Below are positions 250-57,620 of a DNA stretch of 64,000 nt, piece after piece. Every line of letters starts with the position of its first letter. Within the stretch, counting starts at the first letter, position 1. The translations under genes were made by a program, and so were the position numbers. The DNA is from Streptomyces sp. NRRL S-350. GTDB lineage: Bacteria > Actinomycetota > Actinomycetes > Streptomycetales > Streptomycetaceae. The stretch covers positions 186,001 through 250,000 of the forward strand of contig NZ_JOHO01000001.1 of assembly GCF_000719705.1 (NCBI RefSeq). Direction: 5' to 3'. The notes under the pieces were generated by a model. That model did no database searches and was not told the origin of the DNA. It saw nothing but the letters and a program-made list of their open reading frames with translations.

Positions 250-278
250 ACCATACGCATACTCATGGAATTAAGCAA
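250..278 (-). promoter_or_regulatory. Iterated promoter, copy 1 of 16
   Basis: On the minus strand TTGCTT is followed after exactly 17 bp by TATGGT. The shared core reads TTGCTTAATTCCATGA. It would start transcription about 45 bases before the ATPase gene at 199. Confidence 0.8.
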
Positions 279-323
279 TCATCTTATGTCTGGCTACCGC
301 CCTTGACCCACCTTCGCGCTCCC

Positions 324-1670
324 TCATGTCCTCCAGTCAGGGCCGCCCACCGCGTACACCGTCTCCTGGTCCGCCAGCGGCTGGTCCGGCCTGATCCGGG
401 TCCGCGCCACCCACCGGTGCCGGTACTCGTAGGTCACCCCGAGCACCGCGTTCCCCTTGTAGACCGGCCCGACCTTGCGCCCATTGCCGTCGCGGATCCC
501 ATAGCGCACGCGCGGGCGGACGTGGGCACGACGCCAGGTGCCGGCCGCGAGCTCGCCCGCCCCTGCGGCGGAGCGCGCCCGCGCGGCCGGCTCCTCCGGC
601 GGAGGCTCGTAGTCGAGCAAGTGGACGCCGTGGAAGGCGCCGTCGCGGGCTTGCCGGGTCCGCGCGAGCTTCTTGATCTCCCTGTCCCGGCGGCCCGACC
701 CATCCCGCCGGGGCAGCTCGGGCGGCGGCCGCCAATTCTCGAACGCGAGCAGTGCCGCGTAGCCGTACAGGGCACGCCCGGCCGGATGCCCGCCGTAGGG
801 CACCGGCACCAGGCAGTAGAGGGGGGCCCCGGTGCCCCGGTCGGTGGCCGCGGTGAGGAGCCAGCCCAGCCCGTCGTCCAGGTGCCCGTCTTCGCGGGCG
901 GTGAGCACGCCGCCCATCACCATCGGCGCATCACCCAGCGGCAGGCGCCCTTCACCGGCGGCTTCGACCAGGTCGCCGTCGTCGGCCACCGCGTCGAACG
1001 GCACACCGTCGTGGAACAGCAGCACCGACGGGGCGGGCAAGGTCAGTTCCGCGCGGGTCCGCGCGTCCATCATCGCGGTGGTCGCGGCGTCCTCGGCGAG
1101 CGGTCCGGGGACGAAGTGCGGCACCGAGCTGTACGCGGCCAGGCCGGCCGACACGCGCAGCAGGCGCCCGTCCTGCAGATGGTGAGGGGTCGCCAGGCCG
1201 TGATGGGCGAGCAGGGCGCCGGGAGGGGCGAGCCGGCTGCGCACCGCGCCGATGTCGGCGGGCACCAGGTCGCGCAGGGCGCCGCGGCCGCCGGCCCACC
1301 GTTCGTCGTAGCCGGCGAAGGCCTCGTCGCGCCGCCGGGTCTCGGCGAGGGCGCTGCCGGCCACGGCGACCACGTCGACGACGGTGTCAGCGCGGGGGCC
1401 CGAACGGGGCACCAGCGCGGCGATCGTCTGCTCCGACTCCGGGGTGTCGACGGCCGGGGCCCATCCGCCGCACGCCGCCCGGACGGCTTCCACCGCACCG
1501 GTGCGGTGCAGCAGGTGCCGCCAGGCGGTGTTCAGGGGCAGCTTGGGGCCGTGGGCGAGCAGATCGGCGTACGGCATGCCGTACAGGAACCGGTCCAGCG
1601 CGGCGCGGTCCGCCTCCTGTCGGCGAACACCGCCGGCCGGGACACCGGCCTGCCGGGGCGGCCCGGTCAT
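324..1670 (-). CDS. Hypothetical protein, 448 aa
   Basis: I do not recognise the family. The start is the ATG at 1670, which overlaps the stop of the upstream gene as ATGA, so the two are probably translationally coupled. The frame stays open upstream of this ATG, but there it reads as Arg/Pro-rich noise, which argues against a longer protein. The body is Ala/Leu/Asp-rich and soluble. The C-terminus (last ~70 residues) contains a WRRAHVRPRVRYG segment followed by YEYRHRWVARTRIRPD. This resembles the basic 'HWR...W(I/V)xPxxVxP' tail seen in two other proteins of this window. It is the last gene of the leftward unit 324-4837. Confidence 0.7.
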   Translation of the reverse strand: MTGPPRQAGVPAGGVRRQEADRAALDRFLYGMPYADLLAHGPKLPLNTAWRHLLHRTGAVEAVRAACGGWAPAVDTPESEQTIAALVPRSGPRADTVVDVVAVAGSALAETRRRDEAFAGYDERWAGGRGALRDLVPADIGAVRSRLAPPGALLAHHGLATPHHLQDGRLLRVSAGLAAYSSVPHFVPGPLAEDAATTAMMDARTRAELTLPAPSVLLFHDGVPFDAVADDGDLVEAAGEGRLPLGDAPMVMGGVLTAREDGHLDDGLGWLLTAATDRGTGAPLYCLVPVPYGGHPAGRALYGYAALLAFENWRPPPELPRRDGSGRRDREIKKLARTRQARDGAFHGVHLLDYEPPPEEPAARARSAAGAGELAAGTWRRAHVRPRVRYGIRDGNGRKVGPVYKGNAVLGVTYEYRHRWVARTRIRPDQPLADQETVYAVGGPDWRT

Positions 1671-2326
1671 CGCCGGCGCCATTCCGTGCCGTCGAACACC
1701 CGGTAGAGGAAGCGGCGGTTGATCTCCAGACCGGCGGCGATCTGCTTGACGAGCCGCTCCTCCTGCATCCAGGCCTTGCCCCGGCGGACCGCGTCGCCCA
1801 GCTCGGCGGTCAGCACCACGTCCCGGACCTGGTTCGCGCAGCGCCTCAGGTGGGCGCTGGCGATCTGCGCGGTGAGGGTGTCCCCGGTCAGGACGAGGCC
1901 GTCGGCCATCTCGTCCAGCCGCTCGGCCGCGGCGCGGTGGGCTCCGTCCCAGGTGTCGTGCTCGGTGAAGCCCGGCACCCCGTTGCTGACCCATGCCGCG
2001 GCCCACCGGTCCCCGCCGGGCTCCGCGCCGGCCGCCGACCGGTTGTCCGCGTCCCAGCCCTTGCTGAGCGCCGCGTCGGCGAACACGGTGTTGGCCAGGG
2101 CGCGGTGGAAGGCGTACTCGGCCTCCTGCGCCAGCGGGTAGTTGGTCGCCGTCGGCTCGGCGGTGCGGCACACCACGATGCAGCCGTCGAGGTGGTTGCG
2201 GACCTCGTAGGTCGCGCCGCCCCACTGCCTGTGCAGGGGCCGGCCCCGCGTATCGCGCCACAGCGGGGCGTCCTCGAGATCGGGGATGTCCCCGGCGGGC
2301 AGGACCTGGTCGAAGGGTACGGGCAC
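1667..2326 (-). CDS. Hypothetical protein, 219 aa
   Basis: Unknown family. I place the start at GTG 2326, preceded by GGCGAGG at 5-base spacing. An in-frame GTG at 2389 would add 21 residues, but that stretch uses AT-ended codons including a TTA, unlike the rest of the gene, so it is probably leader. The protein is soluble, with Trp- and Asp-rich segments (WAAAWVSNG, EHDTWDGAHR) and a basic C-terminus ending RVFDGTEWRRR. The stop overlaps the next start as ATGA. Confidence 0.7.
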   Translation of the reverse strand: MPVPFDQVLPAGDIPDLEDAPLWRDTRGRPLHRQWGGATYEVRNHLDGCIVVCRTAEPTATNYPLAQEAEYAFHRALANTVFADAALSKGWDADNRSAAGAEPGGDRWAAAWVSNGVPGFTEHDTWDGAHRAAAERLDEMADGLVLTGDTLTAQIASAHLRRCANQVRDVVLTAELGDAVRRGKAWMQEERLVKQIAAGLEINRRFLYRVFDGTEWRRR

Positions 2327-2360
2327 AGCCACCTCGCCTGTTCGCGGTAAGTGAGCATGA

Positions 2361-2401
2361 AGGTACACACGGCTCATCCGAGTGTCCACTTAGGTACACA
2401 C
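2361..2401. repeat. Direct repeat AGGTACACAC, 31 bp apart
   Basis: AGGTACACAC occurs at 2361-2370 and again at 2392-2401, a spacing of about three helical turns. The pair lies just upstream of the preferred start of the 1667-2326 gene, where an operator or an internal promoter could sit. No good -35/-10 pair was found here. Confidence 0.4.
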
Positions 2402-2427
2402 TTCCGTGTCGGGTGGTCGAGGCTCCC

Positions 2428-4933: not shown

Positions 4934-4962
4934 TTGCCTAACTCTATGAGTGAGATTAATGA
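4934..4962 (+). promoter_or_regulatory. Iterated promoter, copy 2 of 16 (tandem with copy 3)
   Basis: TTGCCT, 17 bp, TAATGA on the plus strand, with core TTGCCTAACTCTATGA. It is the upstream member of a tandem pair 49 bp apart ahead of the 5139 gene. It overlaps the divergent promoter at 4941-4969. Confidence 0.65.
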
Positions 4963-7244: not shown

Positions 7245-7273
7245 TTGCTTAAGTCTATGACTATAGGTAGTGT
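7245..7273 (+). promoter_or_regulatory. Iterated promoter, copy 4 of 16
   Basis: TTGCTT, 17 bp, TAGTGT on the plus strand, with core TTGCTTAAGTCTATGA. The 7096-7439 gap otherwise holds a leader of about 160 bases before the 7440 gene, in which no gene was seen. Confidence 0.8.
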
Positions 7274-13354: not shown

Positions 13355-13380
13355 GGTGATGTGCTCCTTGTGAGTGCGGG

Positions 13381-17552: not shown

Positions 17553-17553
17553 G

Positions 17554-27170: not shown

Positions 27171-27199
27171 ACCGTAGCCCATTTCATAGACTTAAGCAA
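27171..27199 (-). promoter_or_regulatory. Iterated promoter, copy 5 of 16
   Basis: TTGCTT, 17 bp, TACGGT on the minus strand, with core TTGCTTAAGTCTATGA. The TAA inside TTGCTTAA is the stop codon of the preceding 27192 gene. Confidence 0.8.
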
Positions 27200-27669: not shown

Positions 27670-29742
27670 TCACAGGTAGGCGCTGACCATCTGCGCGAAC
27701 TCGTCCGGCCCGATGACGGGGATGCCCAGCTGCTCCGCCTTCTCCTTCTTCGAGCCGGCCTTGTCTCCGGCGACGACCAGGCTGGTGCTCTTCTTCGAGA
27801 CGCTGGACCCGGACCGGCCTCCCGCCTTCTCGATCAGCTCGTTCATGCCGTTGCGCGACAGCGGTTCGAGGCGGCCGGACATGGCCCCCGTCACCACGAT
27901 CGTCTTCCCGGCCAGCGGCAGCCCCGCGCCCGTGTCCTGGCCCGAGCCGGAGGTGTCGGCCGCCGGGGCGCTGTCCTGGGGCCCGCCGAGGTTGACGCCC
28001 GCCGCCGCGAGTTTGGCGATCACCGGCTCCAGCTCCGCCAGCTCGGCCAGCATCCAGGCCGACTTCTCCGCGCCGATCCCCTCGACCTGGCGCAGCTCGG
28101 CGGCCGACGCCGCCTGGATGGCGGTCATGGTGCCGAAGAAGTCGGCGATCCGGCGGGCCATGCTGCGCCCGGTCCCACGGACCCCCAGGGCGCACAGCAC
28201 CCGGGCAAGGGGCTGCTGCTTCGCGGCGGCGATGCCGTCCAGGATCTTGGCGGCGGTCTTCTCGCTGCCAGTCGCCTGGGTGAGCTGGCCGAGCGTGAGG
28301 GTGAACAGGTCGGCGACGTCCTGCACCGCCTCCTGCGCGACCAGCTGTGCCACGACCTTCGGTCCGATGCCCTGGATGTCGAGGACGTCGCGCTGCACGG
28401 CGTAGCTGATGGACGCCGCGAGGTTGCACGCGCGGCCCTTCAGGCACCTCCACCGCTCCTGGCTCTTGTCGATCTCGCCTCCGCAGCCCGGGCAGACCAC
28501 CGGCAGCTCGATCGGCGTCTCCTGGCCGGTGCGCGCCGACGTGACGGGGGCGAGGATCTGCGGGATCACGTCGCCGGCCCTGCGGAGTACGACGCGGTCA
28601 CCGATGCGCAGGCCCAGCCGCACGATCATGCCGGGGTTGTGGAGCGTCGCGAACCGCACCGTTACGCCCTCGATCTCGACCGGCTCGACCTCGCCTCGCG
28701 GCGCGATGTTGCCCGTGCGTCCGGTGGTCCAGGTGGCGGCGGTGAGCGTCGAAATCACCTCCAACGCGGGCAACTTGTACGCGATCGCCCATCGGGGCGC
28801 GCGCGAGCCGGAGCCTGCGACGGCCTGGTCCTGCGGATGGTCGGCCTTGATGACGATGCCGTCGATCCCGACGGGCAGGTCTGCGCGCTGCGCGGCGACC
28901 TTCTCGACGTACGCCTGGATGTCCCTGATGAGCGGCGAGGTCAGCGTGCCGACCGGGGTGTCGTCGACGGTCTGGACCCCGAGGCTGCCCAGGGCCTTCA
29001 TCAGCTCGGTGTGGGTCATCTCCTCGCGGATCAGCCGGCCCGTCGCGCCGTCGGCCGAGGTCAGGAGCCCGTACCCGTAGAAGCTGAGAGGGATGGTGTA
29101 CTCCCGGCCGGTCGCGCGGAGCGAGCCCGAGGCGGCGTTGCGGGGGTTGGAGAAGGGGTCCTCGCCGTGGGCAATGCGGATGCGGTTTGCTTCCTCGAAG
29201 CGGGACTGGAGCAGGACCACCTCGCCCCGGACTTCGACCGAGACCGGCGTGTCCAGCTCGACCGGCAGGCCGTCGATGGTGCCGATGGCGTGCGAGACGT
29301 CCTCCCCGGTCGTGCCGGTGCCCCGGGTGACGAGCCGGACGAGCCTGCCCTCGCGGTAGTGCGCCGCGACCGCCAGTCCGTCGATCTTCGGACCCGCGTG
29401 GAACCCGCGCGGCTCGGTGCCCAGCCGCTTGCCCAAGGAACCCGCCCAGCGGACCAGTTCCTCGGCGTCGAAGACGTTGTCCAGGGAGAGCATGGGGGTC
29501 GCGTGTACGACCGATCCCTCGGGCAGCGCCCCGGCGGCCACCAGGGTGGTGGGCGACTCGGCCGCGCGCTGGTCCGGATGTTCCTGCTCGTAGGAGGCGA
29601 TGGTGCTCATGAGGTGGTCGTAGGAGGCGTCGTCCATCTGCGAGTCGCCGCCGCCGTAGTACGCGGCCGCGGCGCGGCGGGCCTGGTCCAGGGCGCGGAG
29701 GTAGGAGTCCTCGTCGGTGATGGGGGCCAAGGTATTCGGCAC
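27670..29742 (-). CDS. ligA: NAD-dependent DNA ligase LigA
   Basis: 690 aa, a full-length LigA. The order is: N-terminal NMN-binding domain Ia (about 1-70, YYGGGDSQMDDASYDHLM); adenylation domain with the active-site Lys in GPKIDGLAV (Lys119) and VEVRGEVVL; OB fold (GNIAPRGEVEPVEIEGVTVR); four-Cys zinc finger (CPGCGGEID...RWRCLKGRAC); HhH region; and C-terminal BRCT (LAGKTIVVTGAMSGRLEPLS). It seals nicks using NAD. The host will have its own ligase, so this is an accessory copy for element replication or repair. Start GTG 29742 after AAGGACAAG. Single promoter at 29872. Confidence 0.95.
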   Translation of the reverse strand: MPNTLAPITDEDSYLRALDQARRAAAAYYGGGDSQMDDASYDHLMSTIASYEQEHPDQRAAESPTTLVAAGALPEGSVVHATPMLSLDNVFDAEELVRWAGSLGKRLGTEPRGFHAGPKIDGLAVAAHYREGRLVRLVTRGTGTTGEDVSHAIGTIDGLPVELDTPVSVEVRGEVVLLQSRFEEANRIRIAHGEDPFSNPRNAASGSLRATGREYTIPLSFYGYGLLTSADGATGRLIREEMTHTELMKALGSLGVQTVDDTPVGTLTSPLIRDIQAYVEKVAAQRADLPVGIDGIVIKADHPQDQAVAGSGSRAPRWAIAYKLPALEVISTLTAATWTTGRTGNIAPRGEVEPVEIEGVTVRFATLHNPGMIVRLGLRIGDRVVLRRAGDVIPQILAPVTSARTGQETPIELPVVCPGCGGEIDKSQERWRCLKGRACNLAASISYAVQRDVLDIQGIGPKVVAQLVAQEAVQDVADLFTLTLGQLTQATGSEKTAAKILDGIAAAKQQPLARVLCALGVRGTGRSMARRIADFFGTMTAIQAASAAELRQVEGIGAEKSAWMLAELAELEPVIAKLAAAGVNLGGPQDSAPAADTSGSGQDTGAGLPLAGKTIVVTGAMSGRLEPLSRNGMNELIEKAGGRSGSSVSKKSTSLVVAGDKAGSKKEKAEQLGIPVIGPDEFAQMVSAYL

Positions 29743-32602: not shown

Positions 32603-32631
32603 AATATACGCACACTCATAGAGTTAAGCAA
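32603..32631 (-). promoter_or_regulatory. Iterated promoter, copy 7 of 16
   Basis: TTGCTT, 17 bp, TATATT on the minus strand, with core TTGCTTAACTCTATGA. The TTAA contains the stop codon of the 32624 gene. This has one of the best -10 boxes of the set. Confidence 0.85.
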
Positions 32632-33532
32632 CATCCTTCGGGTAGGGCTCCGCTTTCATCGCGATGACTGTGCGCGACCGCTCGGCCCGCGTGCGACCCA
32701 CAGCCAGGACGTAACGGAAGTTGCCTGGGTGGCGTACCGAGCGGGCTCCGAGGTGCTCCAGGGCCCTCGGCAGCCACTGCGCCGGACTTTCGCCGGCCGT
32801 ACGGGACGGCGCTCCGAGAGCGGTCAGCCGGCTTTCCACCCCTGCGGCCCCGGGCTCGGGCTCGCGGCCGGTCAGCTTGGCCCGGGACCGAGCCGTCAGG
32901 ACGGTGCCGTCCGGCAGCAGCGTGAGCGTCCGCCGCGTTCCCCGCCCGGTGAACCGGAAGTTGCAGCTCTGGTACACGATGCCGAGATGCCCGTTGGAAA
33001 TGATCATCTCGCCGCTCGGGGTGCGCCGTGACCTGGGCACCGGGTCGGAGAAGCTCACCACCCCCCGGATGCCGCGCTCGGCGGCCTTCTTCATAGCGGC
33101 CGCGATGAAGAAGCTCTCGCCGTTGGCGGCCACGTCGTCGGTGAGCGCCAGGCGCGAGATCTCCGCGCTCTCGTAGTACGGGGCCAAGTGGGGGAAGGCG
33201 CCGGTTAGGACGCGTTCGTTCATGGGGCAGCCCAGGACGAGAGCGCCGGCGAGGGCGGCGCCTTCGGGGCCGGGGCCCTCCTCGCCCTGCGGCGGCTCGT
33301 GGTCCCACAGGCCGTAGCGGTGGAGAGCCGAGGGCCAGCCGGCCAGGTAGTGGTGGTGCTCGATGAACGACCGGGCGAGCGCTTCGGGGATCTCGGTGAC
33401 GCTGTACCGCTCGCGCCGGAAGCCGCCGTCGCTGACGTGCCGCCAGCTGGGCAGGCCGTACCGCCAGCGTTGGGTCCAGCCTCCGGGCCGGCCGGCGAGG
33501 ATGCCGCGCATCTCCGCCGGGGTGGGCGTCAC
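32624..33532 (-). CDS. Mom-like GNAT-fold protein, putative DNA-modification enzyme
   Basis: 302 aa. The central part reads YESAEISRLALTDDVAANGE, then SFFIAAAMKKAAERGIRGVV and SFSDPVPR. This resembles the acetyltransferase-like fold of Mom-type DNA modification proteins, where an 'E(I/L)SRL' strand is followed by a long helix. Mom of phage Mu modifies adenine in DNA. The C-terminal ~90 residues are basic. GTG 33532 overlaps the DpdA-like gene stop by four bases. The last codons GAT GTT GCT TAA supply the -35 of the next promoter. The family assignment is from memory of motif shape only. Confidence 0.55.
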   Translation of the reverse strand: MTPTPAEMRGILAGRPGGWTQRWRYGLPSWRHVSDGGFRRERYSVTEIPEALARSFIEHHHYLAGWPSALHRYGLWDHEPPQGEEGPGPEGAALAGALVLGCPMNERVLTGAFPHLAPYYESAEISRLALTDDVAANGESFFIAAAMKKAAERGIRGVVSFSDPVPRSRRTPSGEMIISNGHLGIVYQSCNFRFTGRGTRRTLTLLPDGTVLTARSRAKLTGREPEPGAAGVESRLTALGAPSRTAGESPAQWLPRALEHLGARSVRHPGNFRYVLAVGRTRAERSRTVIAMKAEPYPKDVA

Positions 33533-34332
33533 ACCGCGCACGACGGTACCCCCGCGTCCTCCAGCCGCTCCATCAGGTGGTTCCTCCACCAGAGCGCGTA
33601 CGACATGCAGTTGCTCTCCGTCTTGTGGGTCGGGCTGCAGCCGCGCTCCCTGCGGCCGGCCGAGCTCCAGGCCATCGAGTCGGCCGACGCCAGCGAGCGG
33701 GACAGCGTCAGGCCCTGAATCTTGAAGCCGAAGGCGTGCAGCGGCACGAGCGGCGCCCCTTCGCCGCCGAGGCGGGCGAGCTCGTCCAGGAGGAGGGAGG
33801 CGCGCCAGTGGTTCTGGCGCCGGCACATGCTGCCGACGCCCACCAGCGGCTCGGCCAGGAGGTCGATGCCGGCATCGGCATACATCTCGGCGCAGCGGAG
33901 GTAGTGGGGGCGCAGCCAGCCCTGCAGGACCGGGATGACGCGGGCCTTGATGCCCAGGGACCGTAGTTCAACGACGGAGTCGACGGTGCGCCTCATGTGC
34001 TCCTCGATGGTGAGGCCGGTCTTGGGCAACATCCAGGGCTCGCAGACCCAGTCCATGGGACTGCACCACTCGAGGTTGCCGATCTCGTCGTGGTAACGGT
34101 TGACGGCGGTTGCGTACTGCTGAGCGGTGGTCTTCCACCGGCCGTAGAGGTCGACCTCGCTGAACGCCCCGCTGTCCAGGGCCCAGGGGCCGGCGGCCCG
34201 GGGCAGGGACTTGCGGTTCATCAGCCGCCGGTTGGAGACGAACAGGGGAAAGTCGAGGTGTTCCATCCAGGCGGGCTGGTGGACGCCCAGGTGGAACCTG
34301 ACAGGTGTCGGCGTAATGGCGGGGGCGGTCAC
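33529..34332 (-). CDS. DpdA-like / queuine tRNA-ribosyltransferase-like protein
   Basis: 267 aa. FHLGVHQPAWMEHLDFPLFV and the 'SNRRL' motif lead into GPWALDSGAFSEVDLYGRW (Asp53-Ser-Gly). CSPMDWVCEPWMLPKTGLTI, IPVLQGWLRPHYLRC, GVGSMCRR, HAFGFKIQGL and ASADSMAWS then follow in TIM-barrel order. This is the actinobacterial/phage branch of the tRNA-guanine transglycosylase superfamily that includes DpdA, which inserts 7-deazaguanines into DNA. The nucleophilic Asp candidates are retained. GTG 34332 overlaps the upstream stop (GTGA). No deazaguanine biosynthesis gene is present in the window, so the base would have to come from elsewhere. Confidence 0.8.
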   Translation of the reverse strand: MTAPAITPTPVRFHLGVHQPAWMEHLDFPLFVSNRRLMNRKSLPRAAGPWALDSGAFSEVDLYGRWKTTAQQYATAVNRYHDEIGNLEWCSPMDWVCEPWMLPKTGLTIEEHMRRTVDSVVELRSLGIKARVIPVLQGWLRPHYLRCAEMYADAGIDLLAEPLVGVGSMCRRQNHWRASLLLDELARLGGEGAPLVPLHAFGFKIQGLTLSRSLASADSMAWSSAGRRERGCSPTHKTESNCMSYALWWRNHLMERLEDAGVPSCAV

Positions 34333-34715
34333 GGTAGGAGCCGTTCGTTGGGTGTCGGATGCTCGGGCCAGGGCGCGAGCAGGGTCGGGTCTCCGGCTTC
34401 CTCGCGGGCCTGGTCCTCGGCCTCGGCAGCACGCACCCGGCCGGTGTGGAAACGGTCCGCTGCGTGCCCGCTCGGCCGGATGCACCGCTGCTCGGCCTTG
34501 ACCGAACAGCGCGGACAGGGCAGGGAGCCGGGGCAGGTGGCGGTGTCCACCAGCCAGTCGCAGGTCGGGCAGGGGGCGCCGCTCACCGGCCGCCCGGCCC
34601 GGTCGACCAAGGCGCCGGCGGCGAGCAGCTGCTGGTACTCGAACCGGTAGACGGGGGCCGGGAGCGGCTGGCACACAACGGCGAAGGCACCCGGCCGGGA
34701 GGGGTCAGCAGTCAC
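34329..34715 (-). CDS. Zinc-finger protein of the modification cassette, 128 aa
   Basis: Residues ~49-80 contain CPTCDWLVDTATCPGSLPC, then PRCSVKAEQRCIRPSGHAAD and RFHTGRVRAAEAEDQA. The CxxC pairs with a Cys-rich loop and a His/Arg helix match the small actinobacterial zinc-finger type that often recognises nucleic acid. GTG 34715 lies inside the end of the DUF4007 gene (11-base overlap), and its stop overlaps the DpdA-like gene. Confidence 0.78.
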   Translation of the reverse strand: MTADPSRPGAFAVVCQPLPAPVYRFEYQQLLAAGALVDRAGRPVSGAPCPTCDWLVDTATCPGSLPCPRCSVKAEQRCIRPSGHAADRFHTGRVRAAEAEDQAREEAGDPTLLAPWPEHPTPNERLLP

Positions 34716-35688
34716 CGGGTCCCTCCGGACGACGGTAAGCGGCGGCCAGGACCTCGTCGGCCAGCTCCGCAGGGGGCGCCGAGTAGGCGAGCAGGGCCTC
34801 TCCCGCCGCGGACTCGACGACCGACAGTGCCGGGTGCCGGCGCGCGGCCCGCTCGAGGGCGCTGTGCAGCGATCGGGTGTCGATGAGCAGCACCCGGCCG
34901 GGGCTGCCGGGCTCGTTGGCCAGCCGCGAGACGGCGATGCTGCCGGGAGCCGACGCGCGGTGGCGAGCAGCGTGGTCGAGGCAGGCGTACGCCAGGACGG
35001 CGGCGGGAGCGAGCCGGCCGGCCCCCCGGTTCAAGCTGAGCACGTGACTGCGGTCGCCGCAGTGATGTTCCCCCGGGGCGGCGGTGGAGAGCAGGTCGAG
35101 GTCGCGGAACGGATTGGTGAGGACGTCCTCCAGGCCGGCGCGCGGCTGGTCGGCGGAAGCGACCTGCGGGACGTACATCGTCGCGATGCAGGCGATGTCG
35201 CGGCCGACGGTGTCGTCGGGCGGAGCCTTCCAGCCGGTCCGCTCCGCTGCTCTGCGGATGTGGGTGCGCAGCTCGGCCCGGGTGAACGTGGAGAGCCCGG
35301 CGCGCGCGAACAGGTAGTACCAGGCCGGTACAGAGCAGGGCGTGCCGCTGAGCAGCCACCAGTGCAGCAGCCACAGACTCGCCGGGTCCTCCAGGTACGG
35401 GTCGGCGCCGGCTTCGTCGAGCAGCCAGCGGCCGCGGGCGGTCGGCGTCACCGCTCCGCCTCCTGCGGCATCCTCCTCGACGAGGCCGAAGGCGCCGGCC
35501 CAGAACCGCATGCTCGCCACCATGCTGGAGCCGACGCCGAGGACGACGGGCGCGTCGGGGTGGCGGAAGACCAGGGGGTCGTCCTGAACGGCGGTGTGGA
35601 CCTTCAAGAGCCACCCCTGCCTCGGAGGGTAGGTCCGGTGGCGACCGAACGCCGGAGCGCAGTCGGCCAGCGGCGGGTGATCCGTCAT
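34705..35688 (-). CDS. DUF4007-family protein
   Basis: 327 aa. APAFGRHRTYPPRQGWLLKV, then APVVLGVGSSMVASMRFWAG, DPYLEDPASLWLLHWWLLSG, and the LADQPRAG...DVLTNPFRDLDLL stretch are the successive conserved blocks of DUF4007. The biochemical role is unknown; members are, to my knowledge, often next to sulfur- or DNA-modification and defence genes. ATG 35688 is preceded by AAGGAG at an 11-base distance. It forms an overlapping block with the zinc-finger, DpdA-like and Mom-like genes. Confidence 0.85.
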   Translation of the reverse strand: MTDHPPLADCAPAFGRHRTYPPRQGWLLKVHTAVQDDPLVFRHPDAPVVLGVGSSMVASMRFWAGAFGLVEEDAAGGGAVTPTARGRWLLDEAGADPYLEDPASLWLLHWWLLSGTPCSVPAWYYLFARAGLSTFTRAELRTHIRRAAERTGWKAPPDDTVGRDIACIATMYVPQVASADQPRAGLEDVLTNPFRDLDLLSTAAPGEHHCGDRSHVLSLNRGAGRLAPAAVLAYACLDHAARHRASAPGSIAVSRLANEPGSPGRVLLIDTRSLHSALERAARRHPALSVVESAAGEALLAYSAPPAELADEVLAAAYRRPEGPGDC

Positions 35689-35746: not shown

Positions 35747-35759
35747 GGGCGGTCGGAAA

Positions 35760-36759: not shown

Positions 36760-37464
36760 TCAGCGGCGGCAGTCGACACCGACGACCAGGAAGTCGGCGG
36801 GCAGGGCGTCGATGTAGGCGTTTGCGTGGTCGTAGTACGCGGTGCTGCCCGTCTCGGCGGCGTCGTCCGAGTTCAGCCAGGCGGGGTCGGTGGTCCAGGT
36901 GTCGTCGAGCTCCCGGAGGCTGTTGCCGGGCACCGCCCGGCGGCGGGCCCGGGCGATGAACCCTGCGCGGTCCAGGCTGATCAGAGCAGCCTCCTCGTCC
37001 CGCTGCCGGGCGCCCGGCTTGCCCTTGATCTCGGCCAGCGCCTTGAGCTGGGGCTGATCGCGGAAGGCGAGGAGCGCCCGGAAGGAGTCGCTGCCCCAGT
37101 GTTCCGCGAACGCCGCCCATGGCTTGGCGGGGGGCATCCCCTCGGTGGCGCGCGACCAGGCGTCGTAGAGGTCGGCGGCCTCGGCCGCGCGGCGGTCCCG
37201 CAGAGCTGCGAGGTCGAGGAGGCTGAGGACGCCGCCCGCACACCGGTCGGGTTGTCCGGACGCGGACCGTACGAGGCGCGGATCGTCGGCGGGTGCTCCG
37301 GAGATCAGCGGGAAGTGGCTGGTGTACCGGCCTTGGGTGATTTGGTAGCTGTCGAAGTGGCCACCTCGGACCTTGTTGAGAGCGCGCCGCAGTCGCGTGT
37401 CGAGGGTGTAGGCGGTTTCGGCGGCGTGCGCGGGCAGGCACACAAGGGTGTGTCGTGAAGCCAT
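36760..37464 (-). CDS. Hypothetical protein, 234 aa
   Basis: First gene behind the promoter at 37557. MASRHTLVCLPAHAAETAYT and the following DTRLRRALNKVRGGHFDSYQ look like a compact N-terminal domain. A helical mid-part (DLYDAWSRATEGMPPAKPWA) and a C-terminal strand (DALPADFLVVGVDCRR) follow. Family unknown. It may act with the modification cassette downstream. Confidence 0.73.
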   Translation of the reverse strand: MASRHTLVCLPAHAAETAYTLDTRLRRALNKVRGGHFDSYQITQGRYTSHFPLISGAPADDPRLVRSASGQPDRCAGGVLSLLDLAALRDRRAAEAADLYDAWSRATEGMPPAKPWAAFAEHWGSDSFRALLAFRDQPQLKALAEIKGKPGARQRDEEAALISLDRAGFIARARRRAVPGNSLRELDDTWTTDPAWLNSDDAAETGSTAYYDHANAYIDALPADFLVVGVDCRR

Positions 37465-37556: not shown

Positions 37557-37585
37557 ATAATAGCCATTCTCATAGACTTAAGCAA
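37557..37585 (-). promoter_or_regulatory. Iterated promoter, copy 8 of 16 (modification cassette promoter)
   Basis: TTGCTT, 17 bp, TATTAT on the minus strand, with core TTGCTTAAGTCTATGA. This is the closest of all copies to an ideal promoter, so the cassette 37464-32624 could be the most strongly expressed when the regulator allows. Confidence 0.85.
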
Positions 37586-39047: not shown

Positions 39048-39125
39048 TGTGGTCTCCCGGGGAGGGTGTTGGGGTGGGCGCGACGCTTAGGGGCGGCCGG
39101 CCCGGCGAGCGGGCCGCCGCGATGC

Positions 39126-39155
39126 CTTAACTCTATCCATTGTCATAGAGTTAAG
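39126..39155. repeat. Perfect 11-bp inverted repeat within promoter copy 9
   Basis: CTTAACTCTAT (39126-39136) is mirrored by ATAGAGTTAAG (39145-39155) with an 8-base spacer. One arm is the conserved promoter core and the other covers the -10 box. It looks like a full two-half-site operator, while the other copies show one half-site. Confidence 0.75.
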
Positions 39156-39158
39156 CAA
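39130..39158 (-). promoter_or_regulatory. Iterated promoter, copy 9 of 16
   Basis: TTGCTT, 17 bp, TAGAGT on the minus strand, with core TTGCTTAACTCTATGA. Its -10 lies in the second, inverted copy of the core (39126-39136). An imperfect GGCGGCC/GGCCGCC hairpin lies shortly after the start point. Confidence 0.8.
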
Positions 39159-41079: not shown

Positions 41080-41108
41080 ACCATAACGTAAATCATAGAC
41101 TTAAGCAA
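41080..41108 (-). promoter_or_regulatory. Iterated promoter, copy 10 of 16
   Basis: TTGCTT, 17 bp, TATGGT on the minus strand, with core TTGCTTAAGTCTATGA. Confidence 0.82.
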
Positions 41109-41743: not shown

Positions 41744-41772
41744 ACACTAAGCGAAATCGTAGAATTAAGCAA
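41744..41772 (-). promoter_or_regulatory. Iterated promoter, copy 11 of 16
   Basis: TTGCTT, 17 bp, TAGTGT on the minus strand, with core TTGCTTAATTCTACGA. The TTAA contains the stop of the methyltransferase gene. Confidence 0.78.
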
Positions 41773-43090
41773 TCACGTGAATGGATTCACCTCCCCTGCG
41801 GTGCGCCTCGGCCTCGACCCCCCGGCGCAGGCGGTCGAGTGCCAGCCGTTGGTGGACCGCCTCCTCGATCGCTCTCCACACCAGGCCCTGGGACGGGTCC
41901 TCCGGCACCCCGGGCTCGCCACGGTTGCCGCGGATGGCGATCACGGTGTCCCCCTGCGGCGGCTGTGCCCTGTGGACCATGATCAGCGTGGGCGTCCCAT
42001 GGCCGGGGATGTACGCCCCCGATGTGTCGATCACCCAGGTCAGGTCCAGGCGGGAGAGGTACTGCTCGATGTACTTTTTGCCGAACTCGCGCTTCATGAA
42101 GGAGTTGGCCGTGAGCTGCGCGATCGTTCCGGCCGGCCGGGCCAGCTTGGTCATCAGGGCGGTGAAGGGCAGCGCGAGGCTGTACTTGCCGCTGCACACC
42201 TGCGGGTAGGCGCGGCGGATCTGCTCGCGCACCTGGGGGTCGCGGACCGTGATGTAGGGCGGGTTGCCCACCACCGCGTGGTAGAGGCCCGGCTGGAGCA
42301 GCGGCGCGTCGGTGTCGAGCAGTGCGTCGGCTGCGGCGACCTGCACGGGCCAGCCGGCGGGCACGGCCGTGATGGGGCCGCCCAGGATGCCGGCGGTCGT
42401 CGCGAGGAGCCGGTACCGCGTCAGGGCAGCCGCGTAGGGGTCGAGGTCGACGCCGTGCACGGCCTGGAGGGCACGCTCCAGGGAGCGCTCGACCGTGGCC
42501 CCGGCGTATGGGGCCCGCCCCCGCGGCCGGTAGGCCCGGACACGGTGGAGGGCGCACACCAGGATGTGCCCGGTCCCGCAGGCGGGGTCGATCATCCGGA
42601 CGCGGTCCGCGCCGACGTCGTCGAGCGCCGGCTCGAGAGAGAGATCGAGCAGCAGTTCCGCGACCCAGGGAGGGGTCTGGCAGAGCGCTCTCGACTTCCG
42701 GGCGTCGGCCGACAACGCCTGGTAGGCGTCTCCCAAGCGGTACCCGTCGATGCGGTGGCCGTCGTCGCCGATCGGCGCGCCGCTCCACAGCCGGGCGATC
42801 AGCTCCCAGCCGGCCGGGCTGATCGGGTTCTCCCAGAGGGGGACGACCTGCGGGTCGGCGAGCGGTTCGAGCGCCGGGTGAGAGCTGGCCAGCGCGCCAA
42901 GGACGCGCCTGGTGTGATCGGGGCCGGCACTGCCCTGGCGCAGCGAGGCGACGAGGCCGTGCGCGGTGGCGTGCTCGACCAGGGCGACCGCGTGGGCCCA
43001 GGAGACGGCGGCCTTGGCGCCGACCTCGCCGGTGAGATCGGCGATCAGGCGCTCGCAGGCCCGGGGGGAGAGTGCTGCGGCAGAAGACAC
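41765..43090 (-). CDS. N6-adenine DNA methyltransferase, orphan
   Basis: 441 aa. Motif I is RMIDPACGTGHILV (DPACGTG at 168-174), motif IV is VVGNPPYI (NPPY at 276-279), and CQTPPWVAELLLDL before motif I matches the 'TP..va' motif X of type IIG/Eco57I and PglX-like enzymes. These use S-adenosylmethionine to methylate adenine in DNA. The protein ends about 100 residues after the post-catalytic region, so a full target recognition domain is missing or very short. No restriction gene adjoins it. GTG 43090 after AAAGGAACTCC. The stop lies in the -35 of the next promoter. Confidence 0.88.
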   Translation of the reverse strand: MSSAAALSPRACERLIADLTGEVGAKAAVSWAHAVALVEHATAHGLVASLRQGSAGPDHTRRVLGALASSHPALEPLADPQVVPLWENPISPAGWELIARLWSGAPIGDDGHRIDGYRLGDAYQALSADARKSRALCQTPPWVAELLLDLSLEPALDDVGADRVRMIDPACGTGHILVCALHRVRAYRPRGRAPYAGATVERSLERALQAVHGVDLDPYAAALTRYRLLATTAGILGGPITAVPAGWPVQVAAADALLDTDAPLLQPGLYHAVVGNPPYITVRDPQVREQIRRAYPQVCSGKYSLALPFTALMTKLARPAGTIAQLTANSFMKREFGKKYIEQYLSRLDLTWVIDTSGAYIPGHGTPTLIMVHRAQPPQGDTVIAIRGNRGEPGVPEDPSQGLVWRAIEEAVHQRLALDRLRRGVEAEAHRRGGESIHVIA

Positions 43091-45935: not shown

Positions 45936-45964
45936 ACATTACCGTTAGTCGTAGACTTAAGCAA
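45936..45964 (-). promoter_or_regulatory. Iterated promoter, copy 12 of 16
   Basis: TTGCTT, 17 bp, TAATGT on the minus strand, with core TTGCTTAAGTCTACGA. It would serve the unit 45808-41765 unless the hairpin at 43104 stops it. Confidence 0.8.
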
Positions 45965-47225: not shown

Positions 47226-47254
47226 ACAATAGATGGAATCATAGCGTTAAGAAA
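47226..47254 (-). promoter_or_regulatory. Iterated promoter, copy 13 of 16 (divergent -35)
   Basis: TTTCTT, 17 bp, TATTGT on the minus strand, with core TTTCTTAACGCTATGA. The -35 has lost the G, so this copy may be weaker or more dependent on an activator. The stop of the 47255 gene adjoins it. Confidence 0.72.
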
Positions 47255-49346: not shown

Positions 49347-49636
49347 GGTCGTTCCTCCGTCGAGGGGCTGGGCGACTCCGGGTGCGCGATGCCGCGCCCC
49401 GCGCCCACGGGGTCTGTGATGACGCTCGCGCTCAGGGCGAGCACCACGGAGTCCACGACCTCTGCTGCGAGTTCGGCCTTCGCCTCGCTGCGGGCGATGC
49501 TGTGGTCGGTGTCTCCGTAGTCGGGCTTCGGGGCCGGCGTGTACCAGGCGACGGTGTCAACGGCCGCCTGGACAGCGGCCGCGAGCTGGTCGCGGTCTGC
49601 CTCGCGGACGAGCCGGGCCAGGTCAGGGACGAGCAT
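49343..49636 (-). CDS. Hypothetical protein, 97 aa
   Basis: ATG 49636 after GGAGTACGTC. Helical (MLVPDLARLVREADRDQLAA, then RSEAKAELAAEVVDSVVLAL). First gene behind the promoter at 49798, with a leader of about 150 bases holding a small CGACC/GGTCG stem. Confidence 0.7.
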   Translation of the reverse strand: MLVPDLARLVREADRDQLAAAVQAAVDTVAWYTPAPKPDYGDTDHSIARSEAKAELAAEVVDSVVLALSASVITDPVGAGRGIAHPESPSPSTEERP

Positions 49637-49797: not shown

Positions 49798-49826
49798 ACC
49801 ATACGTAGACTCATAGATTTACGCAA
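49798..49826 (-). promoter_or_regulatory. Iterated promoter, copy 14 of 16
   Basis: TTGCGT, 17 bp, TATGGT on the minus strand, with core TTGCGTAAATCTATGA. It drives 49636 to 47255. The 49827-50001 stretch beyond it holds a GACAACTTGTC palindrome (49862-49872) and the leader of the divergent 50002 gene. Confidence 0.75.
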
Positions 49827-53053: not shown

Positions 53054-53818
53054 TCAGCTCTTCTTCCGGGTCGTGCGCCGCGTCCGGCCGGCACGCACCC
53101 GTCCCTGCCCCCTGCGGGAGTACACGTGTCTGGTGATCGTCTCCAGGTACCACATGTCCTCGAACACCTCGGGCCGCTTCCGGTCCCCCGGGGTCCGGTC
53201 CGGTGGCTCCAGGTGGCCTTGCCGCTTGTAGTTCTGCGCCGTCGTACGGGGCAGCGGCTCGCCCCGGGTCGCGTTGCCGAGGATCATTCCGTAGCCGCTG
53301 ATGTCGTAGAGGTCCTTCGGGTTGCCCTCCGGAGGCGGGATGACAACCTTGGGCCCGTCGCCCTTGAACTCCGCCCAGACGTGTGACCGGTGCTCTTCGA
53401 CCCAGGTGTCGACCTCGTGGGAGCGCCACCGGCCGGGTTCCGCCTCGTCCGGGAAGCCCTCGACCTTGGTCCAGGTGTCCACCGTCGTCTCGGAGACCTT
53501 GTACCGCAGCGCCAGGCCGGACTTCCCCAGCAGTTCGTCCTCTGCGGTGGCCTCCTCCGCCCCGGCCGCGCCGGCGGCCTCCGCCTGCGCGGTCGCAGGG
53601 GCTTCCACCGCGGAGGCAACGGCACGGCCAGGCCAGGACTGCGGCCGGCTGACCTTGACCCAGGCGTCGACCTGCTCCGCGTCCCACTGCCCGTCAGCGC
53701 CAGGGGCGGGAAAGTTCAGCAACCTCACCCAGGCGTCGACCGTCCGCTCGCCCTCCCCGTAGGTCTCCCCGATCCCCGCGCGGGTCAGCCGCGCAGCAGG
53801 GGGCTTGCTGGTGCTCAC
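53054..53818 (-). CDS. Protein with two excisionase-like HTH repeats, 254 aa
   Basis: GTG 53818. Two related units occur: LTRAGIGETYGEGERTVDAW with QWDAEQVDAWVK (about 10-60), and LALRYKVSETTVDTWTKVEG with RWRSHEVDTWVEEH (about 100-145). Each is a short HTH plus wing typical of MerR/Xis-like DNA-binding proteins. The C-terminal domain (DLYDISGYGMILGNATRGEP, then NYKRQGHLEPPDRTPGDRKR) resembles the repeat of the neighbouring 53877 protein. It ends with an Arg/Lys-rich tail. It would bind DNA, perhaps multiple sites. Confidence 0.75.
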   Translation of the reverse strand: MSTSKPPAARLTRAGIGETYGEGERTVDAWVRLLNFPAPGADGQWDAEQVDAWVKVSRPQSWPGRAVASAVEAPATAQAEAAGAAGAEEATAEDELLGKSGLALRYKVSETTVDTWTKVEGFPDEAEPGRWRSHEVDTWVEEHRSHVWAEFKGDGPKVVIPPPEGNPKDLYDISGYGMILGNATRGEPLPRTTAQNYKRQGHLEPPDRTPGDRKRPEVFEDMWYLETITRHVYSRRGQGRVRAGRTRRTTRKKS

Positions 53819-53876: not shown

Positions 53877-54992
53877 TCAGCGGGCTCCACCGAGCTTGCC
53901 GGGGCGGCGGATGAACGTGTAGGCGGTCGAGCGGTACCACTTGGGCTCGTCGACGGCCGGCTCCTGCCCGTCGTCCGGGGTGCGGTCGGCCGGCGCCAGC
54001 AGCCCGCCGTACAGGTACGTCCGCATCGACGCCACGGTGGTGGCCTTGCCCCGGCCGCGCACCTTCCCGTCGAGCTTGCCGATCTCCTGCAGGGTGAACA
54101 GGTCGGTGTCCGCGCCCGCCGGCAGCTTCAGATCGTCCCGCAGCGGCCCCGGAGCCTCGGCATCCCGGCGGGGAGCACGCACGGCTGCTCCCAGGCGGCC
54201 GGGGCGGCGGATGAAGGTGTAGGCGGTCGAGCGGTACCACTTGGGCTCGTCGACGGCCGGCTCCTGCCCGTCGTCCGGGGTGCGGTCGGCCGGCGCCAGC
54301 AGCTTCTGCGACAGGTAGTTCTTCAAGGTGCCGACGGTGGTGGCCTTGCCCCGCCCGCGGGCCTCGCCGTCGAGCTTGCCGATCTCCTGCAGGGTGAACA
54401 GGTCGGTGTCCGCGCCCGCCGGCAGGTCCAGGTCGAGCAGGTCGCCGGAATCGGCATGCGACTTCGGCGCGGCTGGCTGCCGGCCGGCTTCCTCCTTGCG
54501 CGCTGCTGTTCGGCGCGTGCGCCGCGGCCGGGTGATGTAGGCGTAGGCGGTCTCACGGAACCACATCGGCTCGGTGACCGTCGGCTGGCCGCCATCGTCG
54601 GGGGTGCGGTCGGCCGGCGCCAGGATCCCCTTGGACGGGGACAGGTAGCTGCGCAGGGTGGCGACCGGAGTGGCGTCCCGGTTCAGGGCCCGGCCCTCGA
54701 GCTCGCCGATGCGGCGCAGCGTCAGGAGATCGCGAGGACCGCCCTTGGGCAGGTCGAACGGGTTCTTCTTGCCCTGCTGGGACTGCACCCACGTGCCGAA
54801 GTGGTGCTCGCGCAGCCACGCGTCGACCTCGTCCTCGTCGTAGATCTGCTGCCCGCCCTGGCCGGCCGTGAAGAGGACGTCGGGGAAGCCTTCCTCCTGG
54901 GACCACTTGGCGGCGGACGTCCGGTCTACGTTGTACCGCGCCGCCATCCTGTCGAAGTTGGTGTGCTTGCGCTCGTAACCTGCGGGAATCAT
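53877..54992 (-). CDS. HTH protein with three tandem ~100-aa repeats, 371 aa
   Basis: ATG 54992. The N-terminal HTH is FDRMAARYNVDRTSAAKWSQ with DEDEVDAWLREH. Three copies of a DLLTLRRIGELEGRALNRDA / DLFTLQEIGKLDGEARGRGK -type unit follow, each ending LLAPADRTPDDG...W(Y/F)R. The last two are nearly identical at DNA level with a 300-bp period. The basic linkers (RPRRTRRTAARKEE) suit DNA binding. First gene behind the promoter at 55142; related to the 53054 protein. Confidence 0.8.
   Translation of the reverse strand: MIPAGYERKHTNFDRMAARYNVDRTSAAKWSQEEGFPDVLFTAGQGGQQIYDEDEVDAWLREHHFGTWVQSQQGKKNPFDLPKGGPRDLLTLRRIGELEGRALNRDATPVATLRSYLSPSKGILAPADRTPDDGGQPTVTEPMWFRETAYAYITRPRRTRRTAARKEEAGRQPAAPKSHADSGDLLDLDLPAGADTDLFTLQEIGKLDGEARGRGKATTVGTLKNYLSQKLLAPADRTPDDGQEPAVDEPKWYRSTAYTFIRRPGRLGAAVRAPRRDAEAPGPLRDDLKLPAGADTDLFTLQEIGKLDGKVRGRGKATTVASMRTYLYGGLLAPADRTPDDGQEPAVDEPKWYRSTAYTFIRRPGKLGGAR
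53901..54426. repeat. Tandem 300-bp coding repeat
   Basis: 53901-54126 and 54201-54426 are nearly identical at exactly 300-bp offset, inside the 53877 gene. They encode two of its three 100-residue units. A third, more diverged unit lies near 54516-54780. The near-identity suggests a recent duplication or ongoing homogenisation. Confidence 0.85.
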
Positions 54993-55141: not shown

Positions 55142-55170
55142 AGATTACCCAAACTCATAGACTTCCGCAA
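55142..55170 (-). promoter_or_regulatory. Iterated promoter, copy 15 of 16
   Basis: TTGCGG, 17 bp, TAATCT on the minus strand, with core TTGCGGAAGTCTATGA. The -35 differs from the consensus at two positions. Confidence 0.75.
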
Positions 55171-56837: not shown

Positions 56838-56868
56838 GGTGCCCCCGGCTCGAAGAGCCGGGGGCACC
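56838..56868 (-). terminator. Strong intercistronic hairpin
   Basis: A perfect 14-bp stem (56838-56851 and 56855-56868) with loop GAA lies between the 56912 stop and the 56697 start. Confidence 0.7.
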
Positions 56869-56911
56869 AGGGATGTACTGGGGCACCGGGGGCGGCGCCG
56901 GGGCGAGCCGG

Positions 56912-57412
56912 TCAGTCGCCGCGCACCGGGCAATGGGCACGGTGGACGGGCGAGGAGCGGAACTGCGGGGCCTCGCGCTGGTCCCGGGCGGCCATGAGCA
57001 AGTCACCGAAGTCCGCCAGGGAGTCGATCGCGACGGAGGGAACCGGAGAGAGGCAGGCGTAGCACGGCGCGATCACGCTGAAGGCCAGCCGGGCGGACCC
57101 GGCTTCGTAGGCGGCGATGAAGAAGTAGCTCCGTCGGCCGTGCGAGAGCTGGACGCGGCCCGCGCGGTAGTGCTGCGCCCCGGGGAACAACGGGTGGTTG
57201 GCGTCCTCGTACACGCTCAGCCGGATGCTGCCGTCCAGCCCCAGCCGGTGGCGGAGCAGTGCGGCTACGCCCTCCAGCTCGGAGTCCGAGTCCAGGATCG
57301 TGGGCTCCGGGCCGGAAGGGATGCCGCTTTCCGGGCCGGTCGCGCGGGCGATGGCGGCCCGGAGGGCGGCGTCCTCTATCGCGTCCAGATCAGGGCTGAT
57401 GGTTCCGGGCAT
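56912..57412 (-). CDS. Hypothetical protein, 166 aa
   Basis: ATG 57412. Acidic helical N-terminus (SPDLDAIEDAALRAAIARAT) then a beta-rich part (IRLSVYEDANHPLFPGAQHY, YFFIAAYEAGSARLAFSVIA) with CYAC and a late Cys. First gene behind the promoter at 57592. Unknown. Confidence 0.72.
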   Translation of the reverse strand: MPGTISPDLDAIEDAALRAAIARATGPESGIPSGPEPTILDSDSELEGVAALLRHRLGLDGSIRLSVYEDANHPLFPGAQHYRAGRVQLSHGRRSYFFIAAYEAGSARLAFSVIAPCYACLSPVPSVAIDSLADFGDLLMAARDQREAPQFRSSPVHRAHCPVRGD

Positions 57413-57445
57413 GTCGTCTCCTCGACGGGGATGGCAGAAGGGGGT

Positions 57446-57487
57446 GAGGCCCGGACCGGCCGGGAGGGGTGGCCTGGTCCGGGCCTC
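57446..57487 (-). other. Leader hairpin
   Basis: GAGGCCCGGACC pairs with GGTCCGGGCCTC (12 bp) around an 18-base loop in the leader from the 57592 promoter. The 57413-57738 gap holds this, the promoter and the terminator at 57682. Confidence 0.5.
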
Positions 57488-57591
57488 ATGGCCCCGCCGC
57501 CCGGGGGGAGTGGCGGAGGGGCGAGCCGCGCGAGGCGGCTCCTACGGAGTGGTCTTCGCTGTGAGGTGTTCTCCCGCCCTCACAGCAATGA

Positions 57592-57620
57592 CTATACGCA
57601 TACTCGTTGACTTAAGCAAC
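57592..57620 (-). promoter_or_regulatory. Iterated promoter, copy 16 of 16
   Basis: TTGCTT, 17 bp, TATAGT on the minus strand, with core TTGCTTAAGTCAACGA (two differences in the spacer part). Confidence 0.75.

What the first reader, a model, noticed from the sequence alone, without database searches (positions are those of the whole stretch)
250..57620. Sixteen copies of one promoter/operator sequence define an element-wide regulon
TTGCTTAAnTCTATGA, always placed so that a TAnnnT-like box begins 17 bp after the -35 hexamer, occurs at 250, 4934, 4983, 7245, 27171, 29872, 32603, 37557, 39130, 41080, 41744, 45936, 47226, 49798, 55142 and 57592. The first base of the TTGCTT run and the TCTATGA block inside the spacer are both conserved, which promoter function alone would not require. 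This points to a shared operator or activator site, as in the repeated stoperators of mycobacteriophage L5. No copy was found inside the Tad (8.2-19.8 kb) or 20-24 kb blocks, so two regulatory domains coexist. I know of no description of this motif.
Basis: partly seen in the sequence, partly recalled or inferred. Interest (0 to 1): 0.95.

Follow-up and report, generated by a model that had tools for sequence, protein, structure and literature searches.

The report
Plasmid-wide promoter code, one per plasmid
A contig that matches large Streptomyces plasmids carries 16 copies of one DNA tag in front of its genes, and related plasmids each carry their own version of the tag; a protein encoded on the plasmid itself likely reads the tag and is predicted to switch the whole gene set, including DNA-protection genes, together.

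Summary
All 16 sites exist and are far beyond chance. The 16-mer (up to 2 mismatches) matches 24 times in the 8.78-Mb genome, all on two contigs, C1 (which holds the window) and C111. C1 is syntenic with a 338-kb linear Streptomyces plasmid; 23 of 23 orthologs of site-bearing genes keep a site there, 0 of 180 other orthologs have one.

The likely reader is the 371-aa protein at 53877-54992, predicted to be a MerR/BldC-like winged-helix domain plus three repeats of one. Starting from the single site in front of each plasmid's homolog of this gene, 8 plasmids (one read in part) each give their own set of 14-34 sites: same promoter geometry, different spacer box. Operator types do not mix, except on two held-out type IV replicons (S. 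clavuligerus pSCL3, an S. caelestis contig). Each of these holds an islet with a type I regulator, 2-3 type I sites and a candidate defence gene, beside its own type IV regulator and sites. So regulator and operator travel and diverge together.

The likely regulon includes DpdA, Mom, DUF4007/SspB, a DNA methylase and DNA ligase. Repression is favoured but untested; binding and transcription starts are unmeasured. It works like the phage P1 C1 and L5 immunity regulons, with a different regulator family.

The parts
250..278 (-). operator/promoter copy; 1 mismatch; in front of the ATPase gene that runs off the left edge of the window
4934..4962 (+). operator copy, upstream member of a tandem pair (49 bp apart); -10 reads TAATGA
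   Evidence: same pair in NBC_01216
4983..5011 (+). operator/promoter copy, downstream member of the tandem pair; TACTGT at 18-bp spacing; upstream of 5139-5870
7245..7273 (+). operator/promoter copy upstream of 7452-8090
27171..27199 (-). operator/promoter copy upstream of 25890-27035
29872..29900 (-). operator/promoter copy upstream of ligA (27670-29742)
32603..32631 (-). operator/promoter copy upstream of 32118-32543; overlaps the end of the Mom-like gene by 8 bp
37557..37585 (-). operator/promoter copy in front of 36760-37443 and, on the same strand further down, DUF4007, DpdA and Mom-like genes (one operon is inferred)
39123..39151 (+). weaker inverted copy facing the next site (28.9 bits); left out of the cleaned set
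39130..39158 (-). operator/promoter copy upstream of 38646-39047
41080..41108 (-). operator/promoter copy upstream of 40582-40995
41744..41772 (-). operator/promoter copy upstream of 41545-41697 and the DUF3263 gene 41207-41485
45936..45964 (-). operator/promoter copy upstream of 45119-45682
47226..47254 (-). operator/promoter copy upstream of 46392-47156
49798..49826 (-). operator/promoter copy upstream of 49343-49636
55142..55170 (-). variant copy (TTGCGGAA...) in front of the candidate regulator gene: putative autoregulatory site
57591..57619 (-). operator/promoter copy upstream of 56912-57412, a gene that has a site of the plasmid's own type upstream in all 8 plasmids compared
53877..54992 (-). 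candidate regulator, 371 aa: N-terminal MerR/HTH_17-like domain plus three repeats of a winged-helix-like domain
53054..53818 (-). 254-aa protein with one such repeat, downstream of the regulator
36760..37443 (-). first gene behind site 37557-37585 (227 aa, unknown)
34705..35688 (-). DUF4007 protein / SspB-like, likely in the regulon
33529..34266 (-). DpdA (7-deazaguanine DNA modification) family, likely in the regulon
32624..33541 (-). Mom protein family, likely in the regulon
27670..29742 (-). NAD-dependent DNA ligase LigA, first gene behind site 29872-29900
41765..43090 (-). Eco57I/N6 DNA methylase, PglX-like; last gene of the run behind site 45936-45964 (operon inferred)

Best explanation
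The 16 sites are copies of one asymmetric operator of about 30 bp laid over promoter-like sequences, likely bound, and probably repressed, by the plasmid's own 371-aa protein (53877-54992), which is predicted to be a chain of four winged-helix domains and whose own gene carries a site (55142-55170). Shown: the sites, their restriction to this replicon, their conservation in front of the same genes in a related plasmid, the matching of operator type to regulator type across plasmids, and two independent replicons in which a type I regulator sits with 2-3 type I sites inside a type IV plasmid. Inferred: that the protein binds the site; that binding over the -35, spacer and -10 blocks RNA polymerase (host sigma-HrdB-type promoters); that the weaker site at the regulator's own promoter keeps its level steady; and that the regulon (DNA modification, methylase, ligase and candidate defence genes) is held down in an established host and released when the plasmid enters a cell without the regulator.
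For: Restriction: 24 matches, all on C1/C111; 6 of 394 family genomes (own included) match a 25-bp form at 1 mismatch. Co-occurrence: of 12 motif-bearing handles (11 distinct genomes, as G032 and G397 share coordinates), the regulator is in the 7 that have three or more matches on one contig, and in none of the rest, which have 1-3 scattered matches; all 7 have a variant site in front of the gene. Seeding: one site in front of the regulator homolog leads to 14-34 sites in each of 8 plasmids; for C1 and NBC_01216 these are the sites found beforehand. Of 800 AT-matched random seeds, 16 ended on the same sites and the rest gave at most 14 strong sites. Type specificity: by best matrix, each of the 8 plasmids has its own type only (matrices were trained on them). 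Held-out replicons: S. caelestis contig, 18 type IV + 3 type I sites; pSCL3, 14 type IV-like + 2 type I (25 bits or more); each has a type IV and a type I regulator, and the type I sites and regulator lie within 3.5 kb. GntR, WhiB and ParB-like proteins give one hit each there, at the identity seen in type IV plasmids, so they do not explain type I sites. Conservation: 23/23 vs 0/180; six distant plasmids pooled without the seed gene, 18/46 vs 18/539, p=1.4e-12. Fold: four helix-turn-helix units in the model, best Foldseek match BldC; Pfam MerR in 17 and HTH_17 in 18 of 28 alignment members.
Confidence: 0.73

Rival explanations
1. The same protein is an activator: it binds in the spacer and recruits or re-shapes RNA polymerase at promoters that are weak alone, as MerR-family activators do.
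For: MerR-like domains; the box lies in the spacer; the -35 TTGCTT departs from TTGACA.
Against: Spacing is mostly 17 bp, already optimal, whereas MerR activation works on long 19-20-bp spacers (recalled). The -10 fits TAnnnT in 14 of 16 window sites (read) and 20 of 25 on C1.
Confidence: 0.2
2. Another plasmid protein reads the site, such as a conserved GntR, WhiB or ParB-like protein, or one of two double-XRE proteins (58158-58724, 19982-20443).
For: GntR, WhiB and ParB-like proteins are in all 7 compared plasmids; the 153-aa double-XRE protein is in 5 of them. The double-XRE proteins occur in 5 of 12 motif-bearing handles, those with many sites.
Against: Double-XRE proteins are absent from the caelestis and F-6676 genomes, which have three good type I sites. 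On caelestis and pSCL3, GntR, WhiB and ParB-like proteins give one hit each at the type IV level of identity (36, 52-53 and 66-69%, against 36, 55 and 68-69% in type IV plasmids), while type I sites sit beside the type I regulator.
Confidence: 0.08
3. The motif is the promoter of a dedicated sigma factor or of sigma-like DUF3263 (41207-41485), with no repressor.
For: Complete -35/-10 geometry; a DUF3263 gene lies behind site 41744-41772. That DUF3263 is sigma-like is my own guess.
Against: DUF3263 is not among the proteins shared by at least 4 of 7 plasmids. The spacer box changes between types while -35 and -10 stay, which a sigma factor would not require.
Confidence: 0.06
4. Repeated sequence spread by copying, such as a mobile or recombination element, with no regulatory role.
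For: Many near-identical copies per replicon.
Against: Conserved only within about 30 bp, with flanks at 0.45-0.69 identity; fixed orientation to genes; kept at 23 of 23 orthologs.
Confidence: 0.01

Closest known systems
Phage P1 C1 immunity regulon (PMC8546580, passages)
   Same: 22 dispersed asymmetric 17-bp operators on a plasmid-like replicon; one repressor that acts on its own promoter too. The type IIIa operator here, ATTGCTTAATTGGATTT, even resembles the P1 consensus ATTGCTCTAATAAATTT.
   Different: Plasmids with conjugation and Tad genes, no phage relative found; regulator built of MerR-like repeats; several operator types on related replicons.
Cluster A mycobacteriophage repressor and stoperators (PMC6550527 and PMC9283540, passages)
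   Same: Asymmetric sites repeated over the element; operator sequence shifts with the repressor between related elements; one chain with more than one DNA-binding domain.
   Different: Sites here are promoter-placed, not mainly stoperators; about 30 bp, not 13; no sequence relation found; plasmids.
BldC (PMC5859096, passages)
   Same: Closest solved fold in Foldseek; MerR-like winged-helix units laid head to tail on asymmetric DNA.
   Different: BldC is a 68-aa single domain that oligomerises; here four or more domains are in one chain.
IncP-type Kor regulation (PMC11790492, listing only)
   Same: Plasmid-encoded repressors control plasmid promoters at a distance or on many promoters (listing and recalled).
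   Different: Different proteins and operators (recalled, not compared here).

Membership tests
Cluster A mycobacteriophage repressor-stoperator system | asymmetric site repeated 20 or more times over the element | tested here: met
   25 cleaned sites on C1, 28 on NBC_01216; 14-34 on the others
Cluster A mycobacteriophage repressor-stoperator system | most sites not promoter-associated (stoperators) | tested here: not met
   all 25 C1 sites lie upstream of a same-strand gene, 20 wholly intergenic, 22 with TA at the -10 place
Cluster A mycobacteriophage repressor-stoperator system | regulator related to the phage repressors | tested here: inconclusive
   tblastn of 50,697 phage records: no match at E 0.01; only weak excisionase, terminase small subunit and DNA-binding PHROGs; no fold comparison with the phage repressor itself
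Phage P1 C1 regulon | dispersed asymmetric operators with one in front of the regulator gene | tested here: met
   site 172-197 bp upstream of the regulator gene in 8 of 8 plasmids (this site was the seed); binding and autoregulation untested
Phage P1 C1 regulon | C1-related repressor | tested here: inconclusive
   no phage match to the regulator; P1 C1 itself was not fetched or folded
MerR superfamily DNA-binding fold | winged helix-turn-helix domain of MerR type | tested here: met
   Pfam MerR in 17 and HTH_17 in 18 of 28 alignment members at E 0.1; model and fold matches, modest scores
Classical MerR regulator | one wHTH, coiled coil and effector domain | tested here: not met
   four DNA-binding-like units and no long dimerisation helix in the model
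BldC family | single-domain protein oligomerising on 9-bp direct repeats | tested here: not met
   367-469 aa multi-domain chains in types I-IV; 9-bp repeats in the operator not demonstrated

The most novel reading that the evidence does not exclude
Operator types are immunity groups of conjugative plasmids: the tandem winged-helix protein is a plasmid immunity repressor that silences any incoming plasmid of the same type, while a plasmid of another type escapes. The type I islets on type IV plasmids would then be captured immunity-plus-defence cassettes. This would be a phage-style immunity system run by plasmids.
Probability: 0.35. Interest if true: 0.9.

Novelty: new variant of a known kind. 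Interest (0 to 1): 0.78.

Why it matters
Large Streptomyces plasmids carry defence, DNA-modification and natural-product genes, yet no shared regulatory circuit for them turned up in the papers searched. A regulator that can be paired with its operator in several orthogonal versions makes plasmid compatibility, zygotic induction and co-residence directly testable, gives a ready family of orthogonal promoter-regulator pairs for actinomycetes, and offers a natural series for reading how tandem MerR-like domains recognise DNA.

Tried and rejected
Double-XRE proteins as readers: less consistent. DUF3263 as a sigma-like reader: not conserved enough. Set size alone as a control statistic: random seeds sometimes gave large, weak sets (up to 107), so I repeated the test by margin above the reversed control. 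In one search, five runs counted as 'other' gave 17-28 strong sites (NBC_01216 28; NBC_00280 26 and 22; xanthophaeus 19 and 17). They are probably the known sites in a shifted register, since that call allowed only 12 bp; I did not check them one by one. One 9-bp unit per domain: not supported. Low-GC hits of the genome-contig scan (Polaribacter, Alkalihalophilus, Bacteroidetes and others) were taken as chance in AT-rich DNA and dropped; that was not tested. Rfam: no match in the window. Scattered matches in G032/G397, G120, G161, G399 have no regulator and were set aside. Rows dropped: shifted-register or non-TTGC sites, althioticus 37 to 20, xanthophaeus 18 to 17, pFRL4 15 to 14, C1 26 to 25. 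VIA-align rows for unrelated proteins (XPA, Rad14, TniQ) were taken as common small-fold matches.

In type IV plasmids (pFRL4, xanthophaeus, mirabilis, liliifuscus) annotation shows one longer regulator gene and no separate 254-aa paralog; the hits of the paralog there fall in the regulator gene, so 'in all 7' is not claimed for the paralog.

Mended: single-copy claim for GntR, WhiB and ParB-like proteins (checked), flank identities, Tad identities, -10 counts, leader lengths, the Kitasatospora and pSCL3 own-promoter results. Confidence moved from 0.74 to 0.73 for the last of these.
Full report
WHAT IS THERE. The window is G000:C1:186001-250000; C1 is a 283,353-bp contig of an 8.78-Mb genome. 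Its relatives are Streptomycetaceae. C1 and C111 share 211 of 292 called proteins with the linear 338,085-bp plasmid of Streptomyces sp. NBC_01216, largely in order, so C1 is very likely a plasmid; C111 matches that plasmid's ends. The top protein relative of the regulator, 98% identical, is from Kitasatospora, so the host may be Kitasatospora (inference).

THE OBSERVATION. All 16 copies are real. A matrix scan separates 29 sites on C1+C111 (23.5 bits and more) from the background (7.4 and less). In the genome the 16-mer occurs only on C1 and C111. The 25 cleaned C1 sites lie 5' of same-strand genes, 39-294 nt from the predicted start of transcription to the start codon chosen by my own gene finder; 20 are wholly intergenic and 5 overlap the end of the gene upstream by 8 bp. 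TA is at the 17-bp place in 22 of 25 and TAnnnT in 20.

CONSERVATION. Against NBC_01216, 23 of 23 orthologs of site-bearing genes have a site within 450 bp upstream and 0 of 180 other orthologs do. Within the site, -35, AA, TCTATGA and TAnnnT are kept while the N and the flanks drift. This is the mark of a bound operator fused to a promoter, not of a promoter alone.

FROM MOTIF TO REGULATOR. The motif is rare: 3 of 70 genus genomes and 6 of 394 family genomes, own genome included, match a 25-bp form at 1 mismatch. I tested three DNA-binding candidates against 12 motif-bearing handles (11 distinct genomes). Each of two double-XRE proteins was in 5 (in G090 the 188-aa one only weakly). The 371-aa protein at 53877-54992 was in 7, those with three or more matches on one contig, and in none of the other 5 handles, which have 1-3 scattered matches. 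In all 7 a variant site (TTGCGG or TTGCGC) lies in front of the gene. It has relatives in 31 plasmid records (30 Streptomyces, 1 Kitasatospora) and 40 proteins in the large database (a capped candidate list).

A CODE PER PLASMID. I took the one site in front of each homolog and grew a matrix on that plasmid, accepting only sites above the best hit in the reversed sequence. Sets after clean-up: C1 25, NBC_01216 28, S. althioticus 20, NBC_00280 26, NBC_01456 34, S. alboflavus 27, S. xanthophaeus 17, pFRL4 (first 260 of 432 kb) 14. The geometry is common (TTGC, then TA about 23 bp on), the spacer box is not: type I TCTATGA; type II TTCTTTTT; type IIIa TTGGATTTA; type IIIb TTTTAATT; type IV TTTCAATGTGTA. 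I count IIIa and IIIb as variants of one type. Kitasatospora purpeofusca pKP058 has a fifth type, 18 sites, with the fixed part moved to TGCTGTAACTTATT; there I seeded from a weak cross-match, and no site of the set lies directly before the regulator genes. Scored by best matrix at 30 bits or more, each of the 8 training plasmids holds its own type only, and the reversed controls hold none. Of 800 AT-matched random seeds, 16 ended on the known sites and the rest gave at most 14 strong sites, which in pFRL4 equals the real set. For six plasmids the 'known' set is the one its own seed defined, so this control speaks to how rarely a chance seed does the same.

TWO NATURAL TRANSPLANTS. An S. caelestis contig (315 kb) is a type IV replicon with its own type IV regulator (84% to pFRL4's) and 18 type IV sites. 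It also has a type I regulator (74% to the window's) with exactly three type I sites, all in one 3.5-kb stretch. S. clavuligerus pSCL3 (455 kb) has a type IV regulator (64% to pFRL4's), 14 type IV-like sites (25 bits or more), and a type I regulator (67%) with exactly two type I sites, one before its own gene and one before the next gene. In both, that partner is a homolog (74 and 65%) of C1:174214-175704, which matches the PADLOC candidate defence family PDC-M28C (E 1e-110). Neither replicon was used to build the matrices. The other shared DNA-binding proteins (GntR, WhiB, ParB-like) give one hit each on both, at the identity seen in type IV plasmids, so of the candidates tested only the 371-aa protein accounts for the type I sites. 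The type IV regulator of caelestis has a site 174 bp upstream (37.9 bits); that of pSCL3 only a weak one 178 bp upstream (21.3 bits).

WHAT IS CONTROLLED. Genes behind sites or in the same run include LigA, DUF4007 (SspB-like), DpdA, a Mom-family protein and an Eco57I/PglX-like methylase, and outside the window a gene annotated dndC in NBC_01216 and PDC-M28C; operon membership is inferred. An ADP-ribosylglycohydrolase gene lies convergent nearby. DNA modification and anti-restriction genes are common in the leading region of conjugative plasmids (PMC11541004, start of abstract and passages). This suggests, but does not show, release of the regulon on entry into a new cell. The Tad block and the conjugation block carry no site.

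LITERATURE. None listed a paper on this motif or regulator; the library holds open-licence papers only, and I saw titles and abstract beginnings. Comparisons rest on passages of PMC6550527, PMC9283540, PMC5859096, PMC8546580 and PMC11541004. PMC13245405 (SCP1) was searched for terms; Tad, megaplasmid and pFRL do not occur in it.

LIMITS. No wet data. The conservation test in distant plasmids counts the seed gene unless removed; with it removed, six plasmids pooled give 18/46 vs 18/539 (p=1.4e-12), but pFRL4 alone is not significant. S. mirabilis pI was read in part (100 of 518 kb). Of the 31 plasmid records with a homolog I looked at 12: ten scanned whole or in part (pFRL4 and S. mirabilis pI in part), and two (NBC_00582, S. 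liliifuscus) only at the regulator locus and by pattern search.

Noticed in passing
window 11830-19789: The Tad genes are 61-78% identical to those of type II/III plasmids but 35-51% to NBC_01216, while neighbours at 20-23 kb are 84-90% to NBC_01216 (the LysM gene 8171-11821 is 73%): the block looks swapped as a cassette.
   Followed up: partly
window 32624-37443: Run of genes with DUF4007/SspB-like, DpdA and Mom-family members, an unusual combination of DNA-modification families.
   Followed up: partly
L017:14214-15704 (C1:174214-175704): PADLOC candidate defence protein PDC-M28C; homologs sit beside the type I regulator in both islets.
   Followed up: partly
window 58158-58724 and 19982-20443: Two proteins with two XRE domains each; among 12 motif-bearing handles found only in the 5 with many sites; the second is also in type II and III plasmids.
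   Followed up: partly
window 27171-27199, 32603-32631, 41744-41772: These and two more C1 sites overlap the end of the upstream gene by exactly 8 bp, so the TAA of TTGCTTAA serves as its stop codon in my gene calls.
   Followed up: no
Kitasatospora purpeofusca pKP058 (L191-L205): Fifth operator type with the conserved block at the -10 side; the regulator repeats are spread over two adjacent genes.
   Followed up: partly
type IIIa operators (NBC_01456, L131-L150): ATTGCTTAATTGGATTT resembles the phage P1 C1 operator ATTGCTCTAATAAATTT; chance or convergence not tested.
   Followed up: no
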